Source of the DNA: a virus
Strand: one strand, 5' to 3'
Length of the DNA stretch: 52,459 bases
Virus record (IMG/VR): IMGVR_UViG_3300009155_004654
Span: 1-52,459 of that record
Under the pieces are notes generated by a model. The model saw nothing but the letters and a program-made list of their open reading frames with translations, searched no databases and was not told the origin of the DNA. The position numbers and the translations under genes were made by a program. Below, piece after piece: positions 4,379 through 36,095 of this stretch. How positions within the stretch are numbered: position 1 is the stretch's first letter; each line of letters starts with the position of its first letter.

Positions 4379-4386
4379 CTTCCTAC

Positions 4387-5734: not shown

Positions 5735-5743
5735 CAGGCTAAG
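5717..5743 (+). promoter_or_regulatory. class A promoter-like pair TTGACG-N15-GCTAAG
   Basis: This variant has C instead of T at the second base of the GTTAAG box. A CGGAGGGA ribosome site and the ATG at 5764 follow. Confidence 0.45.
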
Positions 5744-5763
5744 CTATAAGCATCGGAGGGAAG

Positions 5764-5970: not shown

Positions 5971-5985
5971 AGATCGGAGGAAATG

Positions 5986-6717: not shown

Positions 6718-6734
6718 ACATGGAGAATTCAAAT

Positions 6735-6941: not shown

Positions 6942-6942
6942 C

Positions 6943-7149
6943 GTGGCTTTCCGTGGCTTTTTCGATGATGATAACAATAATGATAACAGTAAGAAGGTGC
7001 TTAATTGCCCCATTCATGGTGATTACCCAGCTTCTATGAAGGCTTTTGGGTGTCCCGAATGTGCGAAGGAGCAGGAGGACGAGCAAGAAATTGAAGAAAT
7101 GCTTGACAAGTCCAAGATTGCTCGTTTTAATACTCCAAGGAAGCGGTAA
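6943..7149 (+). CDS. small zinc-ribbon protein
   Basis: This 68-residue protein starts at GTG with AAGGAG 8 bases upstream. A C-x2-H followed about 15 residues later by C-x2-C (CPIHGD...GCPEC) makes a plausible single zinc site, followed by an acidic helical tail (EDEQEIEEML). The Asp/Asn-rich N-terminus (DDDNNNDN) is probably disordered. The target is unknown. One base overlaps the next ATG. Confidence 0.65.
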   Translation: MAFRGFFDDDNNNDNSKKVLNCPIHGDYPASMKAFGCPECAKEQEDEQEIEEMLDKSKIARFNTPRKR

Positions 7150-7313
7150 TGTTATATCACGATTTAACTGACAGAGAAATTATCCAAACTCTTGTTGAGG
7201 ATAAAATTCTGCTTGAAGCAAAAGTTAAGCAATTAGAATCCGAGGTGGAGAAACTTAAAAATAAGAGCGACAAGAAAACTATGTCAATCCCACTATTTAG
7301 ATTTGGAGATTGA
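7149..7313 (+). CDS. small coiled-coil protein
   Basis: This 54-residue protein is not otherwise described by any domain. Residues about 8-42 form a heptad-like coiled coil (IIQTLVEDKILLEAKVKQLE...). The C-terminus SIPLFRFGD is hydrophobic. It starts on the TAATG junction with the zinc-ribbon gene, so the two may act together. Confidence 0.6.
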   Translation: MLYHDLTDREIIQTLVEDKILLEAKVKQLESEVEKLKNKSDKKTMSIPLFRFGD

Positions 7314-7315
7314 TT

Positions 7316-7564
7316 ATGAGATATCTTATTTTAGCCCCCTTGCTTTTGCTTGCTGGAGATGCTAGAGCAGAGGACGAAGAACCAAAAAAGGTCTATCGCA
7401 AAGAAACAACCATCGATTTTGAAGAACTAGAAATTGAGGGTATTTTAGTTAAACCTCAATCAGCATTAGTCCTTGAAAGGAAAAAGGCAAGTTTTAATCC
7501 GCTTATTAAACTTAGAACGGATTGGAACGATGAAATCGAAAAGAACGTTGACGAAGTGAAATAA
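7316..7564 (+). CDS. small exported protein with signal peptide
   Basis: This 82-residue protein has a classical N-terminal signal sequence: Arg at position 2, a hydrophobic core (YLILAPLLLLAG) and a signal peptidase-like site DARA/ED near residue 18. The mature part is charged and short. GGAG lies 7 bases before the ATG. It is expected in the periplasm of a Gram-negative host; its role is unknown. The -35 of the next promoter lies inside its last codons. Confidence 0.65.
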   Translation: MRYLILAPLLLLAGDARAEDEEPKKVYRKETTIDFEELEIEGILVKPQSALVLERKKASFNPLIKLRTDWNDEIEKNVDEVK

Positions 7565-7573
7565 CCCGTTAAG
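7548..7573 (+). promoter_or_regulatory. class A promoter-like pair TTGACG-N14-GTTAAG
   Basis: The -35 is inside the end of the exported-protein gene, and the GTTAAG box is 8 bases before the ATG at 7582. Retention inside coding sequence argues for selection on the motif. Confidence 0.6.
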
Positions 7574-7581
7574 AGGCTTTC

Positions 7582-7776
7582 ATGGACCGCACCCTGTACG
7601 AATTCCAAACGGGCGATATTGTAGCCCATCGCATGAACGAGAATAAAACGGGAGTTGTTCTTGAAGCCAAATATCTAAATCACAAGGGTAGAGAAATTCT
7701 TTATATTTGCTGGTTCGATGAAGGCCCAGCATCTAAAAAGCGTTATCCAGCCGCGCATATTGTAAAAGTATCGTAG
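7582..7776 (+). CDS. small SH3/KOW-like family protein
   Basis: This 64-residue protein reads YEFQTGDIVAHR, TGVVLEAKYL, LYICWFDEG, and closes HIVKVS. It is a clear family member with the WFDEG turn. It has its own class A promoter and no good ribosome site, since the start follows the promoter by only 8 bases. Confidence 0.72.
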   Translation: MDRTLYEFQTGDIVAHRMNENKTGVVLEAKYLNHKGREILYICWFDEGPASKKRYPAAHIVKVS

Positions 7777-14443: not shown

Positions 14444-15529
14444 ATGGCTATCGATTTCAAGACCTTCCTTTCGGTCGCTCCCTACGTCCTCAACGTCCGC
14501 AAGCCTGTCCTTATTCGTGGTCGCCACGGTATCGGCAAGAGCGAGGTTGTCTACCAAATCGCCCGCGAGCTTGGCCTTCCTGTGGTTGAACGCCGCGTTT
14601 CGCAGATGACTGAGGGTGACCTTCTTGGTATGCCTTCCGCTATCGGCACTGAGATCGGCGGCAAGCGTGCGACGACTTGGGACGCTCCCGATTGGCTCCT
14701 CACCGCTTGTGCTCAGCCTGTCGTGATGTTCCTTGACGAAGTGGACCGCGGAACTACTGAGGTTCGACAGGGCATCTTCGAGCTTACCGACTCCCGCAAG
14801 ATCGCTGGCGTTACGCTCCACCCCGATACGCTGATTATCGCTGCTGTGAACGGTGGAAATCACGGGTCGCAATACCAAGTTGGCGAGATGGACCCTGCTG
14901 AGCTTGACCGCTGGACTGCTTTTGACCTTGAGCCTACCGTCGAAGATTGGCTTACTTGGGCGAAGGACAATACTCACGGGCTTGTTTGGGACTTTATCAA
15001 CCAAAACCGCAAGGATCTTGAGCACAACGGGGATTTTGAGCCCAACAAGAAGTACCCGTCCCGACGCTCTTGGAAGCGGCTGAATGACTGTCTCGTCGCT
15101 GGCAAGCTCACGACGGACGCTGCTAAGAAGGCTGGCATCATCTACAACCTCGCTTGCGGATTTGTCGGCTTTGAAGCTGCGGTTAAGCTGAAGGCTCACG
15201 TTGAGAACTACAAGGAGCAGGTTACCGTCGAAGATATCCTTGACGACGGAAAGGTGAGCAAGACCAAGGACTTCGCTATCACCGACCACGCTGCCCTTGC
15301 GGAGAAGATCACTCAGTCGGGTCGTCTCAACGAGGCTCTTACGACGGTCGCTCTCAAGAACCTTGCTTCTTATTGGCTTACTCTGCCCTCTGAGGTTGCC
15401 ATGAAGCTCTACACCGATATCGGTCGCAGCTTCGTCAAGAACGCCGTTGCCCTGCACGCTACGGAGGTCAACGGAGTCAAGGTTGGTGAGCAGCTTGCTA
15501 AGGTGCTTGGTGCTGGTCGCTCTAAGTAG
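14444..15529 (+). CDS. MoxR-type AAA+ ATPase
   Basis: This 361-residue ATPase has Walker A GRHGIGKS (residues 26-33), Walker B VVMFLDEVDR (about 93-102), and a sensor-1 region (TLIIAAVNGG) with the arginine-rich box-VII area after it. The C-terminal 160 residues are a helical lid and an extra domain. MoxR ATPases act as chaperones that activate or insert cofactors, usually with a VWA-domain partner; a candidate partner is the gene at 20828. The gene is GC-rich and codon-biased relative to the right half of the window. Confidence 0.85.
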   Translation: MAIDFKTFLSVAPYVLNVRKPVLIRGRHGIGKSEVVYQIARELGLPVVERRVSQMTEGDLLGMPSAIGTEIGGKRATTWDAPDWLLTACAQPVVMFLDEVDRGTTEVRQGIFELTDSRKIAGVTLHPDTLIIAAVNGGNHGSQYQVGEMDPAELDRWTAFDLEPTVEDWLTWAKDNTHGLVWDFINQNRKDLEHNGDFEPNKKYPSRRSWKRLNDCLVAGKLTTDAAKKAGIIYNLACGFVGFEAAVKLKAHVENYKEQVTVEDILDDGKVSKTKDFAITDHAALAEKITQSGRLNEALTTVALKNLASYWLTLPSEVAMKLYTDIGRSFVKNAVALHATEVNGVKVGEQLAKVLGAGRSK

Positions 15530-17551: not shown

Positions 17552-17761
17552 ATGGCTAAGGCAAAGAAGGCTAGGCGTGTCTATCCTCTAATTAATGAAA
17601 TTGTTGAGCTTATCCCGCAAAAGCGCAGGGCAAAGGTTACTTTTCTTGACCCTCGCATTATCAAGGTCCGCTGGATGGATAACGAAGCGGTTGAGGAATT
17701 CAGCACAAGTTATTTCGTTGATACATATTGGACTATTGCCGTGAGGAATTACGATGTATAA
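17552..17761 (+). CDS. divergent SH3/KOW-like family protein
   Basis: This 69-residue protein has a basic start (AKAKKARRVYP) before INEIVELIP (in place of IGDLV), then AKVTFLD, IIKVRWMDN and a YFVDTYW ending. The basic N-terminus is suited to nucleic-acid contact. AGGAGG lies 6 bases upstream, and the last 8 bases overlap the next gene. Confidence 0.62.
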   Translation: MAKAKKARRVYPLINEIVELIPQKRRAKVTFLDPRIIKVRWMDNEAVEEFSTSYFVDTYWTIAVRNYDV

Positions 17762-17966
17762 GAAGCCTGCTCCCCCGAAGCTTGGAACCCTTGTTGTTGC
17801 TCAAAATATTGATGGGACTATGTGTAATGGATATGTAAGCGGATTTATGGGCGATATTGCTAAGGGTAGATATTGTATTGAAATTACGTTCCATGAAGGA
17901 AAGCAAAATCATCGTTTCTTCTCAGTTGGTGAGGAAGGCAAACTATGGCGCAAGCTCCCCTCGTAA
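17754..17966 (+). CDS. divergent SH3/KOW-like family protein
   Basis: This 70-residue protein reads PKLGTLVVAQ, GYVSGFMGD, YCIEITFHEG, then LWRKLPS. GD is replaced by GT, but strand order and length are kept. It overlaps the previous gene by 8 bases and the following gene by 22 bases in another frame. Confidence 0.6.
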   Translation: MYKKPAPPKLGTLVVAQNIDGTMCNGYVSGFMGDIAKGRYCIEITFHEGKQNHRFFSVGEEGKLWRKLPS

Positions 17967-18169
17967 ATATTGGAGATTTGGTATGGGTTAAAATCCAGCT
18001 TGGAAGGGATCATTATACCTGCTTGACTGCTTTTATCTTTGCGGTTAACTATTGGGATGGGCAAAACGTATCATCTTATTATGCTGAATATTTAGAACAA
18101 AATAATCCTCAAACAACTGCCCTTTATGGGTTTGACTTCAACGATATATGGGGGAAGCTTGAAACCTAA
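17945..18169 (+). CDS. small SH3/KOW-like family protein
   Basis: This 74-residue protein reads VNIGDLVWVKI, LTAFIFAVNY, YYAEYLEQN, and closes IWGKLET. The loops are longer than usual. The 22-base overlap at its start and an overlap of about 40 bases or less at its end are larger than elsewhere in the operon, so start choice here is less certain. Confidence 0.62.
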   Translation: MAQAPLVNIGDLVWVKIQLGRDHYTCLTAFIFAVNYWDGQNVSSYYAEYLEQNNPQTTALYGFDFNDIWGKLET

Positions 18170-18371
18170 TATCAACGTCGGAGATATGGTCGAGATTAAA
18201 TATAGGGTTGATAGCAAGACCCATACTTATCGATATGCTTATGTTACCGAAATTGATGTTCAAGTTGGTAGCATTATGGCAGCAGATGGTTTTGTCGCTA
18301 AATACCTTGACATAGATGAAATTTGCTACCTCATTTATTCCCATAATGAAAGCTGGTGGAAAAAGCTATGA
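18126..18371 (+). CDS. small SH3/KOW-like family protein (start uncertain)
   Basis: The protein core reads INVGDMVEIKY, YAYVTEIDV, YLIYSHNE and ends WWKKL. Translation from ATG 18126 gives 81 residues but overlaps the previous gene by 44 bases. A TTG at 18159 would overlap it by only 11 and fits the family's usual N-terminal length, but its ribosome site is poorly spaced. The coding frame itself is clear. Confidence 0.6.
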   Translation: MGLTSTIYGGSLKPNINVGDMVEIKYRVDSKTHTYRYAYVTEIDVQVGSIMAADGFVAKYLDIDEICYLIYSHNESWWKKL

Positions 18372-18395
18372 AAATTGACTTTGATAAGGTGGACC

Positions 18396-18599
18396 ATGCT
18401 TAAACTTGGTGATATGGTTGACTTCTACGGTAAAGCTGGTGTATCCCCAAGAGGCACACAAGGTATTTATGTGATAATTGAAGAGCATAAAGGTGCCAGC
18501 ACAACTCAATATATTGGCGTGCTAATGTTTGAAGACAAAAAAGAAAGGCTATGGATATTTCCTTCTCAAGAGGGTATTACATGGAAGAAAATAACATGA
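18396..18599 (+). CDS. small SH3/KOW-like family protein
   Basis: This 67-residue protein reads MLKLGDMVDFY, GIYVIIEEHK, YIGVLMFEDK and ends TWKKIT. AAGGTGG lies 5 bases before ATG 18396, which decides this start over a TTG further upstream. The ending WKKIT matches the WWKKL of the preceding gene, suggesting tandem duplication. It overlaps the next start by four bases. Confidence 0.68.
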   Translation: MLKLGDMVDFYGKAGVSPRGTQGIYVIIEEHKGASTTQYIGVLMFEDKKERLWIFPSQEGITWKKIT

Positions 18600-18802
18600 G
18601 ATTTAAAGTTGGGGATTTGGTCCAAAGTGTTAGACACGATCCCGCTGGCAGATTTAGGCTTGCGATTATCATGGGCACAAGCGAGAGCGAGCACAGAAAG
18701 AATTTCCTTTATTATCACCTCTTCGTTGTTGATTGGGACGAGCACCAGCGTTATAGTGCTTACACCGCAGAACGATGCTTTGATTTGATTTCCGCCCCAT
18801 AA
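18596..18802 (+). CDS. small SH3/KOW-like family protein
   Basis: This 68-residue protein reads MRFKVGDLVQSV, RLAIIMGTSES, YHLFVVDWDE and ends CFDLISAP. The central strand has VDWDE in place of V.WFD. It starts on the ATGA of the preceding stop. An in-frame upstream start exists, but this ATG gives the standard family N-terminus. Confidence 0.7.
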   Translation: MRFKVGDLVQSVRHDPAGRFRLAIIMGTSESEHRKNFLYYHLFVVDWDEHQRYSAYTAERCFDLISAP

Positions 18803-18825
18803 TTTTTCCATTCCAAAGGATTCCC

Positions 18826-19089
18826 ATGCCAAAAACAATCCCAAATAACGAGCAATATAAGCTCAAAGATGGAAGAGTTATAAAGCTTGGGGATATTGTT
18901 AAATACAAATGGGGTTATTTTCCAACGGGATATGTGTTTAAAATTGAAAAGAAATGGGGACGTTGGAGGTCGCATGTTCAGTTATTTAATTACGAGCAAC
19001 CATACGATATAATTGAAACAAAACTTTGCGACTTTGATCATTTCTTTTCCTTTCTAACCGAAGAGGAATTAAAAAATGAAGATAGGTGA
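18826..19089 (+). CDS. small SH3/KOW-like family protein
   Basis: This 87-residue protein carries about 18 extra residues before the barrel, then VIKLGDIVKYK, TGYVFKIEKK, SHVQLFNYE and a helical end (FFSFLTEEELKNED). AAAGGA lies 7 bases upstream. The last 14 bases overlap the next gene. Confidence 0.68.
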   Translation: MPKTIPNNEQYKLKDGRVIKLGDIVKYKWGYFPTGYVFKIEKKWGRWRSHVQLFNYEQPYDIIETKLCDFDHFFSFLTEEELKNEDR

Positions 19090-19279
19090 TTTGGTCTGTA
19101 GGCGATCTAATCAAAGGGATCAAATAGGATATATCTATAAGTTAACAAATCATCACAATCCATTTAGAAATAGGGGAGAGCCAGCAAATTATATTATGTA
19201 TCATGTTTGTTGGATTGAAACAGAATGTAAAAACTATTGTTACGAGGAAGGGGATATAGAGATTGTTTCGGAGGCATAA
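19076..19279 (+). CDS. small SH3/KOW-like family protein
   Basis: This 67-residue protein reads MKIGDLVCRRS, IGYIYKLTNHH, YHVCWIETE, DIEIVSEA. The N-terminus is the shortest of the family, with the GD at residues 4-5. Several Arg, His and Asn in the first loop would form a polar basic face. Confidence 0.7.
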   Translation: MKIGDLVCRRSNQRDQIGYIYKLTNHHNPFRNRGEPANYIMYHVCWIETECKNYCYEEGDIEIVSEA

Positions 19280-20827: not shown

Positions 20828-21991
20828 ATGGAAGCTGAAGCAATCAACTACGATCTGAATATGGATCTCTACTACCTTCTTCGGGATGAACCGTTCTTCG
20901 CTACGTTCTCCCGCAACATCAACAAGTCCGCAACAACCGCTATTCCTACTGCTGGCGTTCGTATCAACAAGGAAACGCAGCAATTTGAAATGGTCTACAA
21001 TCCCTCCTTCTTCGCGGGTCTGGAAGATAAGGAGCGAATCGATGTGCTCAAGCATGAATTCTATCATGTTATCTTTGAGCATGTTACAGGTCGTCTTCCC
21101 CCCGAAGGTATGACGAAGATGTGGAATATTGCTACGGACCTTGCGATTAATTCCCACCTTCCGAACATTCCAAAAATGGCTTGTATCCCAGGCGTTGGAA
21201 AGTTTGAAAAGTATCCTGCTGGTCTTTCGGGTGAGCAGTATTTCGATCTTCTTAAGGAAGACCCCGAAATGAATAAGGAACCTCAAGAGGGAGAAGGCGA
21301 TCCTAACTTTGACGATCACGAAGGTTGGGGCGATGGTGAGATTGATAACACCATGAAGGAGATCGCTAAGGAAAACCTCAAGGAAGCTCTTAAGAAGGCA
21401 GCTAAGGAAGCTTCTTCTAAGAATTGGGGTTCTGTCCCTGCTGATGTTCGCAAGCAAATTATGGACAAGCTTGAAGCAACTGTCGATTGGCGTAAGATGC
21501 TTCGATACTTTATCAAGACCTCTCAGCGTGCGGATAAGAACTCTACTGTTCGTAAGGTCAATAAGCGGTTCCCAAGGATCCACGCTGGCAAGAAGGTCAA
21601 TCGTGTTGCGAAGATTGCGATTAGTATTGATCAGTCGGGAAGCGTTAGCGATGAAATGCTTGCTATGTTCTTCACTGAATTGAATGAGCTTTCTAACCTT
21701 GCTACCTTCACTGTGATTCCTTTTGATACACGGGTTGATGAAGCCCTTGTGTATGAATGGAAGAAGGGCAAGCGTCATGTATGGGAACGGGTCATGTGTG
21801 GTGGGACTTGCTTCAACGCTCCTACCAAGTTCGTTAACGAGGGCGATTGGGATGGTCATATTGTCCTTACGGATATGTGTGCTCCTAAGCCGATCTCTTC
21901 TCGTCCCTCCCGCATGTGGATGACAGACAAGGCTAACGCTGCTAATCCCTACTTCAAGACAAATGAGCTTGTGGTTGCGGTTGGTAAGTAA
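20828..21991 (+). CDS. VWA-domain protein with N-terminal zinc-peptidase-like domain
   Basis: This 387-residue protein has an N-terminal half with H76-E-F-Y-H80 plus H85 and a DLAINSHL segment, typical of the metallopeptidase-like domain that precedes VWA in this family. An acidic linker leads to a C-terminal VWA-like domain with the MIDAS sequence DQSGSVS and a distal TDM segment. Family members pair with MoxR ATPases, and a MoxR gene lies 5 kb upstream with similar codon use. GGAGG precedes the ATG. The substrate is unknown. Confidence 0.82.
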   Translation: MEAEAINYDLNMDLYYLLRDEPFFATFSRNINKSATTAIPTAGVRINKETQQFEMVYNPSFFAGLEDKERIDVLKHEFYHVIFEHVTGRLPPEGMTKMWNIATDLAINSHLPNIPKMACIPGVGKFEKYPAGLSGEQYFDLLKEDPEMNKEPQEGEGDPNFDDHEGWGDGEIDNTMKEIAKENLKEALKKAAKEASSKNWGSVPADVRKQIMDKLEATVDWRKMLRYFIKTSQRADKNSTVRKVNKRFPRIHAGKKVNRVAKIAISIDQSGSVSDEMLAMFFTELNELSNLATFTVIPFDTRVDEALVYEWKKGKRHVWERVMCGGTCFNAPTKFVNEGDWDGHIVLTDMCAPKPISSRPSRMWMTDKANAANPYFKTNELVVAVGK

Positions 21992-22355: not shown

Positions 22356-22841
22356 ATGAAACTTACAGAAAGACATATACGTTCAATCGTTAAAGAAGAA
22401 ATTAAATCTATTATGGTTGAAGGATTGTTCGATATATTTAGATCAAAACCAAAGGAAGAAGGGGCATTACAAAAGGCATCAACCGCTTTGGGCGACACCA
22501 ATCCAAAAACTCCCCTAATCCAAGTTCTTTATAAGTTAATGGATAGAGCTTCAACAATCTCTCATAAGGGTGGAATGGTTAGATTTACCGATCCAAGAGC
22601 GTATGAAGAAAGCATGAGAAAAACTGAAATCTTGGTTAATCATTTTGAGGATGTATTAAAGGGATTAAATGAAAAAGAATTCGCGAAGGTTTATAATGAA
22701 GCAGATAAACTTGGGAACTTTCAAGATGCTACTTTTCTTCGACACAATATGAATTCTTTTTATTCTGGAGATCCTTATATTGATAGCAGATCTTCTTATC
22801 ATCAAATATGGGATAAGAAGCTGGAACTTATAAAAGTTTAA
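22356..22841 (+). CDS. unknown protein with RITE-type N-terminal leader
   Basis: This 161-residue protein has a leader MKLTERHIRSIVKEEIKSIM ending in VEG, a plausible I-x-E/G prohead-protease-type site near residues 21-23. The body is helical (AYEESMRKTEILVNHFEDVL) with no recognised motif. It is the first of a series of leader-bearing genes, so it may be a packaged virion protein. AAAGGA lies upstream. Confidence 0.7.
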   Translation: MKLTERHIRSIVKEEIKSIMVEGLFDIFRSKPKEEGALQKASTALGDTNPKTPLIQVLYKLMDRASTISHKGGMVRFTDPRAYEESMRKTEILVNHFEDVLKGLNEKEFAKVYNEADKLGNFQDATFLRHNMNSFYSGDPYIDSRSSYHQIWDKKLELIKV

Positions 22842-22864: not shown

Positions 22865-23341
22865 ATGAAAACATTATTAGAAAATTGGAATAGATTCTTA
22901 ACGGAAGGAATGCAAGATACATCTGATACTTTGTTTTTTCTTAAATCTCCTTGGGGAATGAAAAGAGGAAAATTTGATCATGTTGGATTTGTTTTGAAAG
23001 ATGGAAGAATGAAAGATATGTCTGGTCATAGAGGGGAAATGATTGCTCCTATTATAAGTACTTGGGAACAATTATTGACCGATGATGTATTCTGGGAAGG
23101 TTGGCCCGATAATGAAGACAAACCACAATCTCCCGATGAAGCAAAAAAAATTGGGATTTATCAAATAATGAAACTTCCAAAGGTTGTTGATGTTCCAGAT
23201 GAGATTGTTTGTAGAACATCCGATAAATCAAAAGTATCGGAGAATTGTGGAAGCTTTGTTTTTAATGTTCTTCATAATGCTGGTATTAATCCAGATTTTT
23301 TGAAAGATGATAAATATATTGTTGTTGGAAAGCAATTTTAA
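22865..23341 (+). CDS. papain-fold (permuted NlpC/P60-like) protein with ENW leader
   Basis: This 158-residue protein starts with the leader MKTLLENWNRFLTEG. The body has FDHVGFVLKDGRMKDMSGH (His in the first third) and later SENCGSFVFNVLHNAGI, with a Cys at the start of a helix. His-before-Cys order is that of circularly permuted NlpC/P60 enzymes, which hydrolyse or acylate amide and ester bonds. The assignment is by motif order only. With the leader it is a candidate capsid-packaged effector or wall-modifying enzyme. Confidence 0.55.
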   Translation: MKTLLENWNRFLTEGMQDTSDTLFFLKSPWGMKRGKFDHVGFVLKDGRMKDMSGHRGEMIAPIISTWEQLLTDDVFWEGWPDNEDKPQSPDEAKKIGIYQIMKLPKVVDVPDEIVCRTSDKSKVSENCGSFVFNVLHNAGINPDFLKDDKYIVVGKQF

Positions 23342-23366: not shown

Positions 23367-23930
23367 ATGAAAACATTACTAGAAAATTGGAATAGATTCT
23401 TATTAAGAGAAAAACTTGAACAAGGCCAAAAGATTTATTATTGGCAAGCTCAAGGTGAATGGAGAGGGGACAAACCAATTGAATATGGTGTTACTCACGT
23501 TCCCCAAGCAATACCATTACAAAAAACAATTGGTTCATCATTAAATCACAAATTAGAAGATTTACTTGAAAGAGCAAGATTAGAAGTTGACCCAAGCCTT
23601 CCAAGTCGTTTATCATGCGCTTATGTATGCGACCTTATACAAAAAGGATATTTTGAACATGAAAAATCTTTAAGATCTTATTGTAAGTGTGGAAGTGAAA
23701 AATTAATTACTTATAAGGTAATAATAAAACCTGGAGCAACAATATACAGAGCTAATTCCGCAATATTGGGACATATTATTTATGACCAAACAAATCTTAA
23801 AGATAAAATGGAAGCAGCAAGATTTTACTGGAAAGGGATTCATCCAGAAGATCCAAGTCCATCACCCGAAGTTCTTGTATCTCCTGCAAGCTCCGTTATA
23901 ATAGTTGGAAAGTTGGAGGGCGGCTGTTAA
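23367..23930 (+). CDS. possible ADP-ribosyltransferase-like protein with ENW leader
   Basis: This 187-residue protein starts with MKTLLENWNRFLLRE, identical to the previous gene for 12 residues. The body contains LLERAR...PSRLSCAYVCD, a YRAN strand, EAARFYWKG and SPEVLVSPASSVIIV. This series resembles DUF2441-type ADP-ribosyltransferase-like folds, with an (E/A)ARFYW.G helix and a final E-x-L strand. T4 packages the ADP-ribosyltransferase Alt in its head, so a packaged ART would make sense. Catalytic residues cannot be settled by eye. Confidence 0.45.
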   Translation: MKTLLENWNRFLLREKLEQGQKIYYWQAQGEWRGDKPIEYGVTHVPQAIPLQKTIGSSLNHKLEDLLERARLEVDPSLPSRLSCAYVCDLIQKGYFEHEKSLRSYCKCGSEKLITYKVIIKPGATIYRANSAILGHIIYDQTNLKDKMEAARFYWKGIHPEDPSPSPEVLVSPASSVIIVGKLEGGC

Positions 23931-23934: not shown

Positions 23935-24804
23935 ATGAAACTCTTAATAGAAAACTGGAAGAAATATCTCCTTAACGAAATTGAAATTGTCGATAATGAA
24001 GAAGAAGAGGAATATGATTATGATGCCGAACTTCTTAAACAACAAGGAGAAACAGAAAGCAAATTCTTTGGTCCTGTATTGGAAAGGGCACAAGAGCTTG
24101 CAGTTGATGTTAGCAGATTAATGTTCAGCTTTGAGGATTATGGCGAGGGAGGTCAAATGCTTAGAAGAGCGGTTGAAAAAAAAGGAGAAAAGCTTGGATT
24201 AAATGTTAAATATCTTGGCTCTGGTTCTTCTCGCTTTACTATCTCCGTTAATGATGATTTTGTTATTAAAGTTGCAAAGGAATTGAGATCTACTGACATA
24301 ATCCAAATGAATAAGGATGATTATAATCTTGGAACGAATCCTAGCTTTGGAGGAATATTTCCAAGAGTTTATAAGCATGGTCCTCAAGGGGAAAAGTATC
24401 ATCCCGATTTCTTTTGGATTATAATGGAAAAAGCAACTCCCCTTGTTGATAATAAAAAAATTGCTTCATTCTTTAAAAGCTCTTTTGTTGATTCCGATAA
24501 CTTGGACGAAAGTGAAGCTTATGCTTTTCTTATATTAATGTCCTCATGTATCGTTCGTGGTAGCCTTTATTATGAAGTAAAACCAAGAATTATAAAGTTA
24601 TTGCAGAAAAAAAATCCAAATATGTCAACAATTGATTTTGATATGATAAACCAAGATTTCATGAGATATTCGGACAACTTTAGAAAGATTGTTAGAATCA
24701 CAAAAGAATATCCAAACTTAGATGTTATGGAAGCCTTAGCAATTGGAAACTGTGGAGTTGGATATGATGGAAGATTTGTTATTATTGATTCTTCCATATT
24801 TTAG
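23935..24804 (+). CDS. kinase-fold-like protein with ENW leader (copy 1)
   Basis: This 289-residue protein begins MKLLIENWKKYLLNE, then an acidic linker. The kinase-like part has a Gly-rich loop YLGSGSSR (residues 93-100), FVIKVAK with Lys112 in the VAIK position, a NKDD..LGTNP segment, hinge-like FWIIMEKATP, and near the end GNCGVGYDGRFVIIDSS, resembling the N...D metal-binding pair. The catalytic HRD aspartate is not visible, so activity may be altered. Two paralogues follow. ATG 23935 is chosen because it restores the leader. Confidence 0.6.
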   Translation: MKLLIENWKKYLLNEIEIVDNEEEEEYDYDAELLKQQGETESKFFGPVLERAQELAVDVSRLMFSFEDYGEGGQMLRRAVEKKGEKLGLNVKYLGSGSSRFTISVNDDFVIKVAKELRSTDIIQMNKDDYNLGTNPSFGGIFPRVYKHGPQGEKYHPDFFWIIMEKATPLVDNKKIASFFKSSFVDSDNLDESEAYAFLILMSSCIVRGSLYYEVKPRIIKLLQKKNPNMSTIDFDMINQDFMRYSDNFRKIVRITKEYPNLDVMEALAIGNCGVGYDGRFVIIDSSIF

Positions 24805-24824
24805 TAATAATACAAAATAATATA

Positions 24825-24831
24825 CTATTTA
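24825..24831 (+). promoter_or_regulatory. CTATTTA promoter-like motif
   Basis: The box is 37 bases before the ATG at 24869, which has its own AAGGAG site, so this transcript would carry a leader. Confidence 0.5.
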
Positions 24832-24868
24832 TTGATGAATTAATCACAATATAAAGGAGATTGATTAA

Positions 24869-25192
24869 ATGGCTAAATTAACAGAATCATATTTAAGAGG
24901 TATGATAAAACAAGTAATGAGCGAAATGCAAGATAGATACGAAAGTGGCTATGGTATAGAAAGTGATTTTAATTATGGATTAGAAGCAGGTTATGGCGAT
25001 ATGGTAAAACCTGGCTTTAGAGATCTTGAAGAAATGGCTGATGAATTAGGTTTACCAGTAGGAGAAATCGAAAGTGTTGCTCTAAAATTAGGACACCAAA
25101 TACAAACTCACGGTGGAAGAAGATTAATTAAACTTAAAGATGATGGTCTTTCCGAATCCCGTAAATCAAAACTTGCTCCAAAACGTAGATAA
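24869..25192 (+). CDS. unknown protein with RITE-type leader
   Basis: This 107-residue protein starts MAKLTESYLRGMIKQVMSEM, a variant of the RITE leader. A Gly/Tyr-rich middle (YESGYGIESDF...LEAGYGD) follows, and then a compact helix-turn-helix-like segment (LEEMADELGLPVGEIESVALKLG) and a basic end. DNA binding is possible from the latter part but not shown. AAGGAG lies upstream and a strong terminator follows. Confidence 0.65.
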   Translation: MAKLTESYLRGMIKQVMSEMQDRYESGYGIESDFNYGLEAGYGDMVKPGFRDLEEMADELGLPVGEIESVALKLGHQIQTHGGRRLIKLKDDGLSESRKSKLAPKRR

Positions 25193-25213
25193 TATTTAAT
25201 ATTCTTCGTTAAG

Positions 25214-25249
25214 AAAAAAATCCCTAGGAGAAATTCTGGGGATTTTTTA
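25214..25249 (+). terminator. intrinsic terminator (repeat copy 1)
   Basis: The stem AAAAAATCCCTAG / CTGGGGATTTTTT is followed by ATTG. The whole unit, with the flanking ATTCTTCGTTAA, recurs after the next gene. Confidence 0.85.
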
Positions 25250-25260
25250 TTGTTTATGAT

Positions 25261-25267
25261 CTATTTA
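25261..25267 (+). promoter_or_regulatory. CTATTTA promoter-like motif
   Basis: The box lies 12 bases after the terminator and 23 bases before the ATG at 25291. Confidence 0.5.
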
Positions 25268-25290
25268 ATTTAGCAAAAGGAAGTATTATT

Positions 25291-25890
25291 ATGAGAATAA
25301 CTGAATTACAATTAAGAACTGTAATAAGAGAAGAATTAACAAATTATCTAAATGAAGATAAACAAGTTCTTGAAGAAGGAAAAATACATAATTTTATTGC
25401 TGGTATTCTTGCTGCTGTCGCAATTGGTGGTGGTATAGGAGCTAAGATGAATTCTGCACCAACCTCAAGAGAAGTTGTTCAAACGTCTGTCACAGCAAGC
25501 GATACAGCAGCAACTAATGTAGAAAAAATTATTGAGCAAAATCAAATAAAATTTAACAAAGAAGATAGTTCATTTTCAATTGGTAAAGAAAATATTGGCA
25601 AACTATCTCCTAATGTTGTAAAATCAATTATGAGATTAAAAGAAATTGGCTATGTTGCTAATACTGGTGCCAACACAAATAAGTTAAGAGAGATAGAACA
25701 ACTTAAACAACAAATTGAGAAAGACGAAAGTTATAAACAAGTAGCAGCTAAAATACAAAATTTGAAAGGTATTCAAACAGACCAACAAAATAAAGCTCAA
25801 TCTATATTTGCAATTATTGTTGGTGCTGCTACGATTGGACTTCTATTTAATACTGTAGCTTCCATATATGCTGATGAAAAACGCAGATAA
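25291..25890 (+). CDS. two-helix membrane protein with RITE leader
   Basis: This 199-residue protein starts MRITELQLRTVIREELTNYL. It has a Gly-rich hydrophobic segment (FIAGILAAVAIGGGIGA, about 36-52), a long helical or coiled-coil middle (LREIEQLKQQIEKD...) and a second hydrophobic segment near the C-terminus (IFAIIVGAATIGLLFNTVA). Two membrane segments in a leader-bearing, possibly packaged protein would fit an injected pore-forming or internal-membrane protein. Function unknown. Confidence 0.68.
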   Translation: MRITELQLRTVIREELTNYLNEDKQVLEEGKIHNFIAGILAAVAIGGGIGAKMNSAPTSREVVQTSVTASDTAATNVEKIIEQNQIKFNKEDSSFSIGKENIGKLSPNVVKSIMRLKEIGYVANTGANTNKLREIEQLKQQIEKDESYKQVAAKIQNLKGIQTDQQNKAQSIFAIIVGAATIGLLFNTVASIYADEKRR

Positions 25891-25901
25891 TATTCTTCGT
25901 T

Positions 25902-25935
25902 AAAAAAATCCCTAGAAGAAATTCTGGGGATTTTT
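25902..25935 (+). terminator. intrinsic terminator (repeat copy 2)
   Basis: This is nearly identical to the copy at 25214, with one base changed in the loop. Its T-run runs directly into the next CTATTTA box. Confidence 0.85.
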
Positions 25936-25936
25936 A

Positions 25937-25943
25937 CTATTTA
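25937..25943 (+). promoter_or_regulatory. CTATTTA promoter-like motif, 5 bases from start codon
   Basis: TTTTTACTATTTAATAAC is followed by the ATG at 25949. The terminator's T-run leaves no room for a -35 of normal sequence. Confidence 0.6.
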
Positions 25944-25948
25944 ATAAC

Positions 25949-26860
25949 ATGAAACTATTATTAGAAAACTGGCGTAGATTCCTCAAAGAAGAGGATCAAA
26001 AAGAATATGATTATGAAGCGGAAGTAGCAAAAGAAAAAGAAGAGCTTGAACAAAAGCACTTTGGAGCTTCTGCTAATATTGGTCAAATGTTATATGATAT
26101 TTATCAACAAGAAATGGTAACTCTTGAAGCACAGGGATATACATTTAAACAAATAATTGATAATCATCATAGAGAAATTTTTAATGTTATTCAAACAAAA
26201 TTTAATAATATTTCATCAAACAAAGTTTCTTCAAATAGTTTAGAAAATTCTGGTAGAGGAGCATTTCGTGCTGTTTTCTCTTGTGATAAAGATTTCGTAA
26301 TTAAGATTGATGCTTCTGTTGATGGTTCTGGAACGGATATGAACCGTGATGATCAAAAAGTTGGAACAAACCCAAAGTATAAAGATATTTTCCCTCGCGT
26401 GTTTAAGGTTGATCCAGAATATAAATGGATTGTTGCGGAGAAAGTAAAGCCTATTCGTCATAAGTTAACAATATGTGATGCCTTTCCAAACAGACATTTA
26501 AATAATGATCTTTCTAATACAGACAAATATGTTGAATTAATTAAAATTTGTATGATATATAAAGTAGCACAAATGAAAGGTGCTAAAAATACTATGGTAG
26601 AATGTGAAAACAAATTTTTTACTTTAAGAACTGTTTTGCATATTGGTCGTGCTGCTAAATTAGATACATTTATGGACATTATAAAAGAATTTAATAAATT
26701 GCCACTATTCTTCAAGATGGTTTCGGCAGTGTTTGAATTAGATGTTGACGTTGAAGAAATAATGACTGTAAGAAATTTAGGCACTGGAACTGATGATAGA
26801 TTGGTCATTCTTGATTCCTCAATAGCTGATTCTTTGGATAAAGGTAGAGCAGCATTTTAG
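25949..26860 (+). CDS. kinase-fold-like protein with ENW leader (copy 2)
   Basis: This 303-residue protein starts MKLLLENWRRFLKEED, with an acidic linker as in copy 1. The kinase-like elements are GRGAFRAVFSCDKDFVIKID, MNRDDQKVGTNP, FPRVFKVDP, KWIVAEKVKP and, near the end, VRNLGTGTDDRLVILDSSI. The HRD aspartate is again missing; Asn and the later Asp are kept in all three copies, which argues for conserved nucleotide or metal binding. It probably shares a packaged, injected role with its paralogues. Confidence 0.6.
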   Translation: MKLLLENWRRFLKEEDQKEYDYEAEVAKEKEELEQKHFGASANIGQMLYDIYQQEMVTLEAQGYTFKQIIDNHHREIFNVIQTKFNNISSNKVSSNSLENSGRGAFRAVFSCDKDFVIKIDASVDGSGTDMNRDDQKVGTNPKYKDIFPRVFKVDPEYKWIVAEKVKPIRHKLTICDAFPNRHLNNDLSNTDKYVELIKICMIYKVAQMKGAKNTMVECENKFFTLRTVLHIGRAAKLDTFMDIIKEFNKLPLFFKMVSAVFELDVDVEEIMTVRNLGTGTDDRLVILDSSIADSLDKGRAAF

Positions 26861-26864
26861 AATA

Positions 26865-26871
26865 CTATTTA
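26865..26871 (+). promoter_or_regulatory. CTATTTA promoter-like motif, 4 bases from start codon
   Basis: AATACTATTTATTAT is followed by the GTG at 26876. The box lies 5 bases after the previous stop. Confidence 0.55.
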
Positions 26872-26875
26872 TTAT

Positions 26876-27070
26876 GTGTCCCTTCAAAGATTTAATGTTG
26901 GCGATGTTGTAAAGGCTTTAAACCTTAGTGAGTGTGGTTTTGTTGAAAAAATTGAAGAACATTACATAATAAGTGAAAAAAATTTTGTATTTGTTTATTA
27001 CATAAGAATGTTTCACGATAATGTTATTCATATATGGTTTTATGAGGATACATTAGTTAAGATATCGTAG
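26876..27070 (+). CDS. small SH3/KOW-like family protein (outlying copy)
   Basis: This 64-residue protein starts at GTG and reads FNVGDVVKALN, CGFVEKIEEH, YYIRMFHDN and closes LVKIS. It lies more than 6 kb from the main array, under a CTATTTA box rather than a class A promoter, so the family is not limited to the early region. An out-of-frame ATG overlaps the GTG. Confidence 0.68.
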   Translation: MSLQRFNVGDVVKALNLSECGFVEKIEEHYIISEKNFVFVYYIRMFHDNVIHIWFYEDTLVKIS

Positions 27071-27078
27071 AGGTGCAA

Positions 27079-27279
27079 ATGCAAAAGAACTTTGTTCGTT
27101 ATAAGTCCGAAGGATTGTTTGGAGATATTATAACAATTACAATTTCAAAAGACGAAGCAATTGAAAGACAAATTAGAGCTGGTGAAATAAACAATTATAT
27201 TTACAAGACCAGAGAAGAAGCACTTGAAGATTTTATGATTTGTAATTGGGCTTGGTTTTTTGAAGAAACGCCTTATTAA
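27079..27279 (+). CDS. small conserved-type phage protein of unknown function
   Basis: This 66-residue protein has ITITISKDEAIERQIRAGE in its first half and then YKTREEALEDFMICNWAWF. The ending (T.EEALEDF...NWA) is a pattern I have met in many small phage proteins without known role. AGAGG lies 6 bases before ATG 27079. It is flanked by a barrel gene and a kinase-like gene. Confidence 0.65.
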   Translation: MQKNFVRYKSEGLFGDIITITISKDEAIERQIRAGEINNYIYKTREEALEDFMICNWAWFFEETPY

Positions 27280-27281
27280 TA

Positions 27282-27288
27282 CTATTTA
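27282..27288 (+). promoter_or_regulatory. CTATTTA promoter-like motif, 5 bases from start codon
   Basis: AATACTATTTAATAAC is followed by the ATG at 27294, the same 15 bases or so as upstream of 25949. Confidence 0.6.
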
Positions 27289-27293
27289 ATAAC

Positions 27294-28256
27294 ATGAAAG
27301 TATTATTAGAAAACTGGAAAAAATATATTAAAGAAGAATTAAGACCAGAAGATTATGAAGATGAACCTTTTCCAGAAGAACAAAGCGAAGAAGAAAAAGC
27401 AGAAGCTTATTTAGGAAATCCAAAATCTATTGGTGAATTTATTTATACAGCTTTTCGTGAAGAACTTGAAAAGCAGCCAAATGATACCGAAGCTCAACTT
27501 TGGTCCGATAGAATTGTAAGTGATGCAAACTATAAAATTAAACAAAAATTTCCAAATGTAAAATATCTTGGTAATGGTGTATTTAGAACTGCTTACACAT
27601 TAAATAAAAATTTAATTATAAAAGTTAATACTTCTTTTACAACTGATAGTGGACAAATGATGAATAAAGAAGATTTCACATTAAGTCGTGATCCTCAAAC
27701 TTCACAAATGTTTCCAAGAGTTTATTCTCACGATCCAGATTTTAATTGGATTGTTATGGATTTGGTTTATCCAATTGTAACACCAAAAGAATTTTATTCA
27801 TTTTTTCCTAACGATATCATAGCTCCTATCTTATCTAAAGAGCCTATGCTTTATAGATTAATTTTTCATAATTCAATTCGACTTGAAATAGCAAGAATGA
27901 AAAAGAATAAAAAATTATTTGTTGAACTTAATGATATATATAAAACAAAATTATCTGCTGGAATTAAAAACCATTTAGGTAAGAAAGTAAGTATGGATAA
28001 AATTGTTAGTGGATTTAAACCTTTATTTTTGCAAGTATGTAATGCTATTCTTAAACATAATATAAAAATAGAAGAAGTAAGAGCAAATAATACAGGGTTT
28101 ACAATCGATCAAAGTGGTAATAAAAGTTTTGTTTTGCTAGATTCCTCTATTGATGCAAGTATTAAAAAAGCACTTAAACAACCAGAACCTAAAGTGGCTC
28201 CAACAAAACAAAAGAAACAAATAGTAAATGCTGCAACTACTACAATTAGAAGATGA
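27294..28256 (+). CDS. kinase-fold-like protein with ENW leader (copy 3)
   Basis: This 320-residue protein is the longest of the three. Leader MKVLLENWKKYIKEEL, acidic linker, then YLGNGVFRTAYTLNKNLIIKVN, MNKEDFTLSRDP, FPRVYSHDP, NWIVMDLVYP, and RANNTGFTIDQSG...VLLDSSI. The C-terminus adds a basic tail (PKVAPTKQKKQIVNAATTT). The HRD Asp is missing here also. Four bases overlap the next gene. Confidence 0.6.
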   Translation: MKVLLENWKKYIKEELRPEDYEDEPFPEEQSEEEKAEAYLGNPKSIGEFIYTAFREELEKQPNDTEAQLWSDRIVSDANYKIKQKFPNVKYLGNGVFRTAYTLNKNLIIKVNTSFTTDSGQMMNKEDFTLSRDPQTSQMFPRVYSHDPDFNWIVMDLVYPIVTPKEFYSFFPNDIIAPILSKEPMLYRLIFHNSIRLEIARMKKNKKLFVELNDIYKTKLSAGIKNHLGKKVSMDKIVSGFKPLFLQVCNAILKHNIKIEEVRANNTGFTIDQSGNKSFVLLDSSIDASIKKALKQPEPKVAPTKQKKQIVNAATTTIRR

Positions 28257-29655: not shown

Positions 29656-30363
29656 ATGAATTTAACAGAACAACAAAGACACGCAATTGATTGTGTTGTA
29701 GCTATATTTGAAACAGGAAAAGTTCCATCAGCTAAATCATACTCAACTTGTTCAGTTCTCGATGATGGGGCTGGAATAAGTTATGGAAAGCACCAGTGTA
29801 CGGACAAAGCAGGTTCATTAGATTTGGTTTGTAAAAAATATATTGAATTAGGTGGACAACATGCAGAGCCATTAAAACAATATATGAATTATCTTTCTAC
29901 AAATCAATCTTCTAAATTTGGTTCAAGAAGAGAAAATTATCCAACTTGGCTTGTGTCTTTAATCAATCTTTTGAAATCTGCTGGTGAAGATTCAATCATG
30001 CACAAAGCTCAAGATGAAGTATTTGATGTAAACTATTGGCTTCCAGCAGTTAATCACTGTAAAAATATTGGTATTACATCAGCTTTAGGACATTTAGTAA
30101 TTTATGATACTTGTATTCATTCTGGTCCTGGTAGAGTTTCTTCTTTAAGACAATTATTCCCAGAGAAATCACCAGCTAACGGTGGCGATGAAAAAGCTTG
30201 GGTTCTTGCTTTCTTAAATGCCAGAAGAAATTGGCTTGCTGCTAATTCAAATCCATTAGTTCAAAAAACAGTTTATAGAATTGATGCTATGAAAGCTATT
30301 GCTGATTCTGGTAATTGGGAATTAAAATTACCTATGACAGTAAGAAATGTTAAAATTGCCTAA
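29656..30363 (+). CDS. chitosanase-like (GH46-type) endolysin
   Basis: This 235-residue protein has AIDCVVAIFETGK (a Glu at residue 19 in the catalytic position), GAGISYGKHQCTDKAGSLDLV, and later HLVIYDTCIHSGPG. This layout matches chitosanase-type glycoside hydrolases that phages use as peptidoglycan lysins. No signal peptide or wall-binding domain is present, so release would need a holin. No RITE or ENW leader is present. Confidence 0.65.
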   Translation: MNLTEQQRHAIDCVVAIFETGKVPSAKSYSTCSVLDDGAGISYGKHQCTDKAGSLDLVCKKYIELGGQHAEPLKQYMNYLSTNQSSKFGSRRENYPTWLVSLINLLKSAGEDSIMHKAQDEVFDVNYWLPAVNHCKNIGITSALGHLVIYDTCIHSGPGRVSSLRQLFPEKSPANGGDEKAWVLAFLNARRNWLAANSNPLVQKTVYRIDAMKAIADSGNWELKLPMTVRNVKIA

Positions 30364-34202: not shown

Positions 34203-36095
34203 ATGAAATTTGTGTTAAATAAACAAACTGGTTTTTTTGTTTTACGAGAAGATTTAACTTCTGGTATTAAAGCTGCTGCTAGAGATTTAGTAGATCTAGA
34301 AAATAAAAAATTAAAAACTCTTGAAGATGTTACGAGAGAATCGGAAAGAGAATATAACAACGCAAAAAAAACTAAAGAGCAAAAGAAAACTGAATATGAA
34401 CAAGCTTATGCTTTTTTGCAAAGTTTTAAAGAAGAATTAACAAGTTTTTATTTTCAAGGAAATAAAATATTTTATAATAAATATGACAAGACAAAAGAGG
34501 TTGCATTATTTATTGAAGATCAAAAAAATGCCAAACCAACAACCGAACAAGTTAATAACTATTTAGAAGAATTACAAAAGCATTTAGATAACGATAGATT
34601 AAAAAATAACCTTGAAAATATAAAAAAAGCCTTATATAAATGTGCCGATTATTCTCCAAATGATGAACAAATTGATGAAAAAGAATTAGATGAAGCAATA
34701 AAGAATGTTCAAACGATGATTAGTGCTGGTGCTTTGATACCAATAGTTCTTGGACAACCAGAAATAGCTCCGTTTGTACTTTTTTTGTATAAAGCTTTGT
34801 GTGTTGAACCACCAGCAAAATTTGAACGAGTTGTTCCTATATATGGAGAGACAGTAGATCAAATATTAAATCTATTAAAGATTTTTCTTTCAGTAGATGG
34901 AATTAAAAGATTGATAATAAATTCTTTACCAGGTGTTGGTACGTATAATATGGTTAAATCTCTTTATATTGTTATAAAATACAGAGATCAATTGCCAGCT
35001 TGTAAAAAATCTACAGAAATTAATTCTGAAGAACCCACGCAACAAAAAGAGCAACCACAACAAACAAAAAATAATTCAAACGATAAAGATTTAACAGATT
35101 ATAAAAATCGCGAAGATTTTAATATTGCTGGTGATAGAAAAGCTAAAGCTGATTTAGAAAGATCTCTTTCTACAAGAAATAGAAGAATTGATCAAGCTAG
35201 AATAAATACTAGAAGAAATAAAGTTAATGAATCTAAAATATTAAAAGAATATAGAGAAGAAATCAATAATCTCCTTATTCCTCATATGCAAAAGCAACTT
35301 GGTTTTAATCATCCTCCAACAATTAATTTTGCGGAAGACCCAGAAAATGCACAAGATATGTTTGGAAAAACAGCATATTATAATCCAAGCACAAGCGAAA
35401 TAACGGTTTATATAACCAATAGACACCCAAAAGATATCATGCGTTCTGTAGCACATGAAATAGTACATCACGCACAGAACCAAAGAGGAGAGTTTGAGAA
35501 CTCATTTAATCTTGGTGAAGAAGGTTACGCACAAAACAATTCCCATTTAAGAAGTATGGAAGAAGAAGCTTATTTAAGCGGAAATATGATATTTAGAGAT
35601 TGGGAAGATAATTTTAAAAAACAAAGGAACCAAAATAAAATGATTAATGAATCAAGTTTAAGAGCAAAGATACGCTCGTTAATTAAAGAAGAAATGTATA
35701 ATCACATAGAAAATGAACCAGCTAATAAACATGATGCTGGATGTGGATGTAAGGAATGTGATAAGAAAAAAAGATTCTTAGATGATCATGGTGTTAAAAA
35801 CATAGCTGAATCTGTTGAAAAAGAAATCATGCCACTTAAAGAATGGCGTAACATGGAATTAAATTCTTTGCTTCTCAATAGATTTGGTATTGTCTCTCCA
35901 CAAGTATTAGGAGAGAAAACCATGACACCAAAAGAAAAAGAATTAGCAGCTAAATATCCACCAGAAGATAAAATTACTAGAGGCGATGTTATAACAGCAG
36001 CTAAAGAAAAAGGTGGTAAATCAGCTAAAAAACCAGCTAAGAAAGGTAAAGTCCCACCACAATTCTTAAAGGGAAAGCAAGATGAAAGCAAGTAA
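34203..36095 (+). CDS. large zinc-metallopeptidase-containing protein with internal leader-like segments
   Basis: This 630-residue protein begins MKFVLNKQTGFFVLRED, a degenerate leader, followed by a helical and coiled-coil region and a hydrophobic stretch near 180-200. The peptidase part has H418-E-I-V-H422 and a later Glu-rich helix (SMEEEAYLSG) that may give the third ligand. At residue 480 a RITE-like segment appears (MINESSLRAKIRSLIKEEM), then a CGCKEC zinc cluster and a Lys-rich tail. I infer a head-associated precursor that is cut into pieces. It overlaps the next gene by 14 bases. Confidence 0.68.
   Translation: MKFVLNKQTGFFVLREDLTSGIKAAARDLVDLENKKLKTLEDVTRESEREYNNAKKTKEQKKTEYEQAYAFLQSFKEELTSFYFQGNKIFYNKYDKTKEVALFIEDQKNAKPTTEQVNNYLEELQKHLDNDRLKNNLENIKKALYKCADYSPNDEQIDEKELDEAIKNVQTMISAGALIPIVLGQPEIAPFVLFLYKALCVEPPAKFERVVPIYGETVDQILNLLKIFLSVDGIKRLIINSLPGVGTYNMVKSLYIVIKYRDQLPACKKSTEINSEEPTQQKEQPQQTKNNSNDKDLTDYKNREDFNIAGDRKAKADLERSLSTRNRRIDQARINTRRNKVNESKILKEYREEINNLLIPHMQKQLGFNHPPTINFAEDPENAQDMFGKTAYYNPSTSEITVYITNRHPKDIMRSVAHEIVHHAQNQRGEFENSFNLGEEGYAQNNSHLRSMEEEAYLSGNMIFRDWEDNFKKQRNQNKMINESSLRAKIRSLIKEEMYNHIENEPANKHDAGCGCKECDKKKRFLDDHGVKNIAESVEKEIMPLKEWRNMELNSLLLNRFGIVSPQVLGEKTMTPKEKELAAKYPPEDKITRGDVITAAKEKGGKSAKKPAKKGKVPPQFLKGKQDESK

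What the first reader, a model, noticed from the sequence alone, without database searches (positions are those of the whole stretch)
23935..28256. Three kinase-fold-like paralogues lacking the HRD aspartate
All three keep a Gly-rich loop, a VIK(V/I) lysine, a WI(V/I)..(K/V).P hinge and an N...LDSS/IDSS pair. None shows an aspartate at the usual catalytic position. This points to pseudokinases or an atypical AMP-transferring (SelO/Fic-like in chemistry) activity. Triplication under separate promoters suggests selection for different targets.
Basis: partly seen in the sequence, partly recalled or inferred. Interest (0 to 1): 0.65.

Follow-up and report, generated by a model that had tools for sequence, protein, structure and literature searches.

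The report
Head-tagged phage kinases with glutamate base
Three related kinase-like proteins of a T4-type phage each begin with a short detachable-looking tag, shared with about a hundred unrelated phage proteins, that probably loads them into the virus head for injection; they are not missing their catalytic acid but carry glutamate where kinases usually have aspartate.

Summary
The three paralogues are real and have a kinase-like fold (two AlphaFold models; Foldseek and VIA neighbours are almost all kinase-superfamily proteins). The catalytic acid is not missing. Glu sits five residues before the invariant Asn in P0003 (as in HRDxxxxN) and six before it in P0001 and P0002. Twelve relatives share this 'E-type' pattern; six more distant relatives have the usual Asp. 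Across these 18 proteins a second acid, in helix C, is swapped the opposite way. The proteins end shortly after the DFG-like Asp, so they lack the activation segment and most of the C-lobe. The larger point lies outside the original finding: each protein starts with MK(L/V)L(L/I)ENWxxYLxE. That 14-residue module heads 231 distinct proteins with 104 unrelated bodies (HAD, Nudix, nucleotidyltransferase, canonical kinases). It ends at [LI]xE, the cleavage motif of the T4 prohead protease. A close sister phage encodes that protease, a gp20-type portal and a Gp23 capsid protein whose propeptide carries a similar motif before its [LI]xE. Best explanation: head-packaged, protease-trimmed, injected kinase-like effectors, probably catalytic. 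Packaging, injection, cleavage and activity are inferred, not shown.

The parts
23935..24804 (+). P0001, tagged kinase-like protein (289 aa): Gly loop aa 95-100, Lys112, helix-C Asp129, hinge 161-169, Glu266, Asn272, DFG-like Asp285; ends 4 residues after Asp285
25949..26860 (+). P0002, tagged kinase-like protein (303 aa): Gly loop 102-107, Lys119, helix-C Asp135, hinge 160-168, Glu270, Asn276, DFG-like Asp289
27294..28256 (+). P0003, tagged kinase-like protein (320 aa): Gly loop 93-98, Lys110, helix-C Asp127, hinge 152-160, Glu261, Asn266, DFG-like Asp283; 67% identical orthologue in sister phage G001
23935..23979 (+). Tag A of P0001 (MKLLIENWKKYLLNE), ends in L-N-E
25949..25990 (+). Tag A of P0002 (MKLLLENWRRFLKE), ends in L-K-E
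27294..27335 (+). Tag A of P0003 (MKVLLENWKKYIKE), ends in I-K-E
24727..24795 (+). P0001 catalytic-loop equivalent MEALAIGN...IIDSS (Glu-x5-Asn-x12-Asp)
26750..26821 (+). P0002 catalytic-loop equivalent VEEIMTVRN...ILDSS (Glu-x5-Asn-x12-Asp)
28068..28148 (+). P0003 catalytic-loop equivalent IEEVRANN...LLDSS (Glu-x4-Asn-x16-Asp)
22865..23341 (+). Tag-A protein (MKTLLENWNRFLTE), 158 aa, no family match
23367..23930 (+). Tag-A protein (MKTLLENWNRFLLRE), 187 aa, DUF2441 (PF10386, E 1.1e-5) and phrog_5663
22356..22841 (+). Tag-B protein (MKLTERHIRSIVKEEI), 161 aa
24869..25192 (+). Tag-B protein (MAKLTESYLRGMIKQVM); an 18-residue stretch is 78% identical to the tag-B ORF two genes before the prohead protease in G001
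25291..25890 (+). Tag-B protein (MRITELQLRTVIREELTNYLNE), 199 aa
30389..30709 (+). Tag-B protein (MLTEIKLRQVIRKYILNE), 106 aa
31142..32560 (-). Exonuclease-like protein (RNase_T) with a tag-A-like N-terminus (MKKFDLIMENWRGFKSLLNE)

Best explanation
The three proteins are single-domain, C-terminally truncated members of the kinase-like superfamily made as cargo of a T4-type phage head. Proposed sequence of events: during assembly the N-terminal helix MK(L/V)L(L/I)ENWxxYLxE docks the protein on the prohead core; the gp21-type prohead protease cuts after [LI]xE at residue 14-15 and releases the mature kinase inside the head; it enters the host with the DNA and modifies or binds a host or defence target at the start of infection. 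ATP and Mg binding are expected from the intact Gly loop, beta-3 Lys, catalytic-loop Asn and DFG-like Asp; the catalytic base would be Glu instead of Asp. Shown here: the kinase-like fold prediction, the Glu/Asp column, the truncation after the DFG-like Asp, the modular tag ending at [LI]xE, the T4-type head genes in the collinear sister phage, and the raised dN/dS of the P0003 pair. Inferred: cleavage, packaging, injection, catalysis and target.
For: Fold: P0001 model pLDDT 78.4; its 50 best PDB hits are all kinase-superfamily (APH(2''), methylthioribose kinase), 75 hits at E<=1e-3, VIA Z up to 6.9. P0003 model pLDDT 78.6, top hits also kinases, Z up to 7.3. Profile search of PDB sequences is weak (best E 0.025) but 19 of 20 hits are kinases. 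Active site: acidic residue in 15 of 15 rows; 12 E-type versus 6 D-type relatives. Tag: 231 proteins, 226 bodies in 104 clusters; in 104 one-per-cluster representatives, positions 9, 11, 12 and 14, which the search pattern did not fix, are conserved (R9 84, Y/F11 92, L/I12 91, E14 82) and conservation falls to background after position 15; [LI]xE at E13-17 in 89 of 104 against 3-10 of 104 in later five-residue windows. T4 precedent: gp21 cuts after L/I-x-E and a 10-residue CTS suffices for packaging and delivery (PMC9026906). Sister phage G001, collinear with the window and mostly 75-97% identical, has Peptidase_S77, gp20-type portal and Gp23. A tag-A matrix scanned over the ORFs of G001 and G003 finds, apart from N-terminal tags and one internal site in G001, the Gp23 propeptide RLLENQAKELLRE as the best hit (10.3 bits in both genomes; remaining ORFs at most 2.5); all five Gp23 proteins examined have this stretch. 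Tag-B proteins flank the protease in G001, with similar N-termini near it in other contigs. Tags A and B occur on the same CWxGYxKxGMKK...PNCV cargo domain. P0003 against its orthologue: dN/dS 0.58 while most collinear neighbours are 0.08-0.28.
Against: No virion proteomics, no measured cleavage and no isolate carrying tag A. The window record itself is a fragment without head genes. VIA Z values are middling (6.9-7.3) and global TM-scores low. Tag A shares T4's [LI]xE logic but no demonstrated homology to the T4 CTS. Positions 1-8 of the tag were fixed by the search pattern. P0001 and P0002 have a one-residue longer catalytic loop. Whether Glu can serve as base here is untested.
Confidence: 0.62

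Rival explanations
1. Head-packaged pseudokinases: they bind ATP or nothing and act as decoys, scaffolds or inhibitors of host or defence kinases after injection.
For: HRD Asp replaced; nothing much after the DFG-like Asp, so no activation segment; by the formal definition of pseudokinases (PMC12599244) they qualify; raised dN/dS.
Against: Beta-3 Lys, Asn and DFG-like Asp are invariant in the 15-row alignment; the replaced residue stays acidic in all 12 E-type proteins; another E-type pair, L007/L010, is under purifying selection, dN/dS about 0.14.
Confidence: 0.22
2. An AMP-transferring (SelO-like) or other atypical transferase on a kinase fold.
For: SelO also carries a changed HRD Asp and is an AMPylase with flipped ATP (PMC8097203).
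Against: Here the position stays acidic and D-type relatives look like ordinary kinases. SelO's inserts and arginines that hold the flipped ATP were not tested.
Confidence: 0.07
3. A kinase acting on nucleic acid or a small molecule (ArkI-, Bud32- or APH-like) rather than on proteins.
For: No peptide-binding activation segment; neighbours of the models include TkArkI, PRPK/Bud32, APH(2'') and RIO kinases. ArkI belongs to the tRNA-phosphorylation system of PMC9095486 (listed; that ArkI is the tRNA kinase is from my own knowledge).
Against: Those rows are tied in Z with ordinary protein kinases; no substrate-site conservation was shown.
Confidence: 0.2
4. The tag is not a head signal but another localisation signal, such as an amphipathic membrane-binding helix or a signal for some other phage compartment, and the proteins are ordinary cytoplasmic host-takeover factors.
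For: The tag is a predicted helix (residues 2-16 and 2-15) with hydrophobic and basic residues; tagged genes in G001 lie about 70 kb from the head genes.
Against: The sharp end at [LI]xE, the related motif in the Gp23 propeptide and tag-B proteins beside the prohead protease.
Confidence: 0.2

Closest known systems
T4 internal proteins IPI, IPII, IPIII and Alt with capsid targeting sequence (CTS) and gp21 processing
   Same: Short N-terminal peptide ending in [LI]xE on diverse proteins of a phage with an S77 protease, Gp23 capsid protein and gp20-type portal (in sister phage G001); in T4, delivery of host-modifying enzymes such as Alt.
   Different: Different and longer sequence (14 residues, LLENW core, against a 10-residue CTS); much wider cargo, here kinases, HAD, Nudix and nucleotidyltransferases; packaging not demonstrated.
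Kinase-PolyVal (PF18762), kinase domains of phage and plasmid polyvalent proteins (PMC5512222)
   Same: Predicted to travel with phage DNA; kinases that lost the C-terminal subdomain but keep active-site residues.
   Different: No PF18762 match in the window or in the other records searched; stand-alone tagged protein rather than a domain of a large polyprotein; Glu instead of Asp at the catalytic position.
phrog_4301 (unknown function) and the small kinase-like proteins of Pectobacterium phage CBB (gp534, gp535); CBB gp534 relatives in Salmonella phages Munch and SE_PL are annotated 'putative protein kinase'
   Same: Same motif order; the window proteins match phrog_4301 at 1e-7 to 3e-9; CBB proteins also end soon after the DFG-like Asp.
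   Different: No tag; Asp at the catalytic position and Glu in helix C. Whether CBB gp534 and gp535 are themselves phrog_4301 members was not tested.
SelO pseudokinase AMPylase
   Same: Kinase-like fold with a changed HRD Asp.
   Different: Here the change keeps an acid; no test of flipped ATP binding.

Membership tests
Protein-kinase-like superfamily | Two-lobed kinase-like fold | tested here: met
   Foldseek and VIA neighbours of two models are almost all kinase-superfamily; Z values are middling
Protein-kinase-like superfamily | Gly-rich loop, beta-3 Lys, catalytic-loop Asn, metal-binding DFG-like Asp | tested here: met
   Lys, Asn and Asp invariant in the 15-row alignment; Asn-Asp spacing 13 in P0001 and P0002
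Protein-kinase-like superfamily | Catalytic Asp of HRDxxxxN | tested here: not met
   Glu instead, at N-5 (P0003) or N-6 (P0001, P0002); Asp in 6 relatives. Loss of this one residue does not remove a protein from the superfamily (pseudokinases, SelO)
Canonical Hanks-type protein kinase | Activation segment and C-lobe helices after DFG | tested here: not met
   Proteins end 4, 14 and 37 residues after the DFG-like Asp
Kinase-PolyVal (PF18762) | Match to the Pfam model | tested here: not met
   No match at E<=1 in the window or 8 other records; not among the Pfam matches of P0001-P0003
T4-type internal (CTS-bearing) head proteins | N-terminal peptide ending in [LI]xE | tested here: met
T4-type internal (CTS-bearing) head proteins | gp21-type protease and Gp23 head in the same phage | tested here: inconclusive
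   Present in collinear sister phage G001 and four other contigs; absent from the window record, which is a fragment
T4-type internal (CTS-bearing) head proteins | Found processed inside virions and injected | not testable with these tools
   Needs virion proteomics
SelO AMPylase | Flipped ATP with SelO-specific arginines and inserts | not tested
   Only the changed HRD position was compared

The most novel reading that the evidence does not exclude
A mobile 14-residue address tag, unlike the known T4 CTS in sequence but ending in the same protease motif, loads at least a hundred unrelated enzymes into the heads of environmental T4-type phages; among them is a family of minimal kinases in which the catalytic Asp and the helix-C Glu have traded places (Asp to Glu, Glu to Asp) while staying active.
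Probability: 0.4. Interest if true: 0.78.

Novelty: new variant of a known kind. Interest (0 to 1): 0.6.

Why it matters
If the tag is a head-targeting signal, a simple sequence search lists the injected protein arsenal of a large group of uncultured T4-type phages without virion proteomics, including enzymes of unknown target. It would also give a second portable signal for loading proteins into T4-type heads. The kinase family poses a clean question about catalysis: can Glu replace the HRD Asp when the helix-C acid changes in the opposite direction?

Tried and rejected
Single-protein searches with P0003 found no relatives in viral contigs or phage isolates; only the alignment reached them. 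Pfam gave only sub-threshold noise for the three proteins. Tag A was not found in phage isolates, and isolates with related cargo were few and uninformative. No held paper contains the tag sequence (its hits are chance letter strings). PF18762 membership rejected. The separate-promoter claim rejected; the T4-type late promoter TATAAATA is no more frequent than chance. The idea that 12-17 kb is non-coding was dropped: an AAA ATPase lies on the + strand there. Tree placement of long-branch rows (L008, CBB534, L016) is unsure, so the claim of two independent E/D switches is kept as suggestive only. SelO did not appear among the listed structural neighbours, which does not exclude it.

Full report
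What is there. The window is one whole IMG/VR virus record (52,459 bases, a fragment). The finding covers three paralogous genes: P0001 23935-24804, P0002 25949-26860, P0003 27294-28256. They are about 30% identical, match phrog_4301 of unknown function, and do not match any Pfam kinase. They are not adjacent: two other genes lie between P0001 and P0002 and two short ORFs between P0002 and P0003.

Fold. AlphaFold models of P0001 (pLDDT 78.4) and P0003 (78.6) have the kinase order of elements: three N-lobe strands with the Lys on the third, helix C, two strands to the hinge, helices, then catalytic loop and two short strands ending at the DSS Asp. The best structural neighbours are kinases: APH(2''), methylthioribose kinase, MPS1, PRPK/Bud32, RIO, PINK1. 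The Z values (up to 6.9 and 7.3) are middling and the global TM-scores low, so I rely on the agreement of hits and motifs. A profile search of PDB sequences finds kinases in 19 of 20 weak hits.

The catalytic acid. In alignment A3 a column just before the invariant Asn is acidic in all 15 rows. P0003 has Glu261-x4-Asn266, the spacing of HRDxxxxN; P0001 and P0002 have one residue more. Twelve tagged or close relatives (the window three included) are E-type; six more distant ones (L009, L075, CBB gp534 and gp535, HATV-2 gp073 and gp074) have Asp. L008 could not be classed. In helix C the acid three residues after the conserved Asn is Asp in the E-type set and Glu in the D-type set wherever I could read it. 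In the tree L009 and L075 fall beside an E-type clade (84/81), which would mean at least two joint changes, but support is moderate and several branches are long.

Truncation. The three proteins end 4, 14 and 37 residues after the DFG-like Asp, so the activation segment and the later C-lobe helices are absent. The same trait was described for the kinase domains of polyvalent proteins (PMC5512222), but PF18762 itself does not match here.

The tag. All three proteins start with MK(L/V)L(L/I)ENWxxYLxE, as do two neighbours at 22865 and 23367. A DNA pattern scan fixing only residues 1-8 gave 80 listed viral loci (more exist). With the earlier loci this makes 231 distinct proteins; 226 bodies fall into 104 clusters, 69 of them singletons. 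In one representative per cluster, residues 9, 11, 12 and 14, which the pattern did not fix, are conserved and conservation drops to background after residue 15; 89 of 104 have [LI]xE with Glu at 13-17 against 3-10 of 104 in later windows. Cargo includes Pkinase (two above the Pfam cut-off), NUDIX, weak HAD and nucleotidyltransferase matches, and many unknowns. A second tag, B (ITExQLRxIIREE), sits on other proteins of the same island, and one cargo domain occurs behind either tag.

Link to heads. Contig G001 is collinear with the window; most shared genes are 75-97% identical. It carries a Peptidase_S77 prohead protease, a gp20-type portal and Gp23. Four further contigs with kinase relatives also have both S77 and Gp23. 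In G001, tag-B ORFs lie on both sides of the protease, and similar N-termini appear near it in other contigs. A tag-A matrix run over the ORFs of G001 and G003 finds, besides N-terminal tags and one internal site in G001, the Gp23 propeptide RLLENQAKELLRE as the best hit in both (10.3 bits; the rest at most 2.5), and all five Gp23 proteins have this stretch near the N-terminus. T4 gp21 cuts after L/I-x-E, and the ten-residue CTS of IPIII is enough to package and deliver foreign proteins (PMC9026906). This is why I read the tag as a head-targeting signal; it is an inference.

Evolution. Between the window and G001 the P0003 pair is 67% identical with dN/dS 0.58, while most collinear neighbours are 0.08-0.28; a few others (for example 34203-36095) are as high. 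P0001 has no close counterpart in G001. Faster change with conserved active-site residues fits a conflict-type effector but does not prove it.

Verdict (my estimates). Kinase-like fold: about 0.93. Glu as the catalytic-position acid: about 0.85. Head packaging: about 0.72. Injection: about 0.6. Catalytic phosphotransfer: about 0.5. New variant of known kinds (T4 internal proteins; truncated phage kinases).

Noticed in passing
L018:169-4380 (IMGVR_UViG_3300028920_000170): 1403-aa ORF that reads as three kinase-like modules in tandem (TDYG, FDFG, FDVG motifs) followed by a stretch resembling a CCA-adding/poly(A) polymerase nucleotidyltransferase; by eye only apart from the HMM hit to the first module.
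   Followed up: partly
L011:5863-7293: E-type kinase fused to a C-terminal domain with a HELQH zinc-peptidase-like motif.
   Followed up: no
L119:1040-2020, L131:11471-12376, L141:1418-2452, L162:4639-5664, L119:10813-11892: Further tag-bearing kinase-like proteins with ordinary DxxxxN catalytic loops; the first four match Pkinase (two above the cut-off), the last carries tag B and has no Pfam match.
   Followed up: partly
window 14444-15529 and 20828-21991: A MoxR-like AAA ATPase and a VWA/DUF2201 metallopeptidase-like protein, the first inside a G+C-rich stretch (0.50-0.55 against 0.35 overall) at about 12.7-16.7 kb.
   Followed up: no
window 2929-7776 and 17552-19279: A run of many short ORFs (about 50-105 aa) with a repeated xIGDLV...W pattern, possibly a paralogous SH3-like family.
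   Followed up: no
window 25215-25248 and 25904-25935: Two near-identical terminator-like hairpins flanking the tag-B gene 25291-25890.
   Followed up: no
window 29656-30363: GH46 (chitosanase-type) glycosyl hydrolase, 76% identical in sister phage G001.
   Followed up: no
G001:2218-3585: 455-aa ORF with an internal tag-like site KILQNWDKFLNE at residue 177, possibly an internally cleaved head protein.
   Followed up: no
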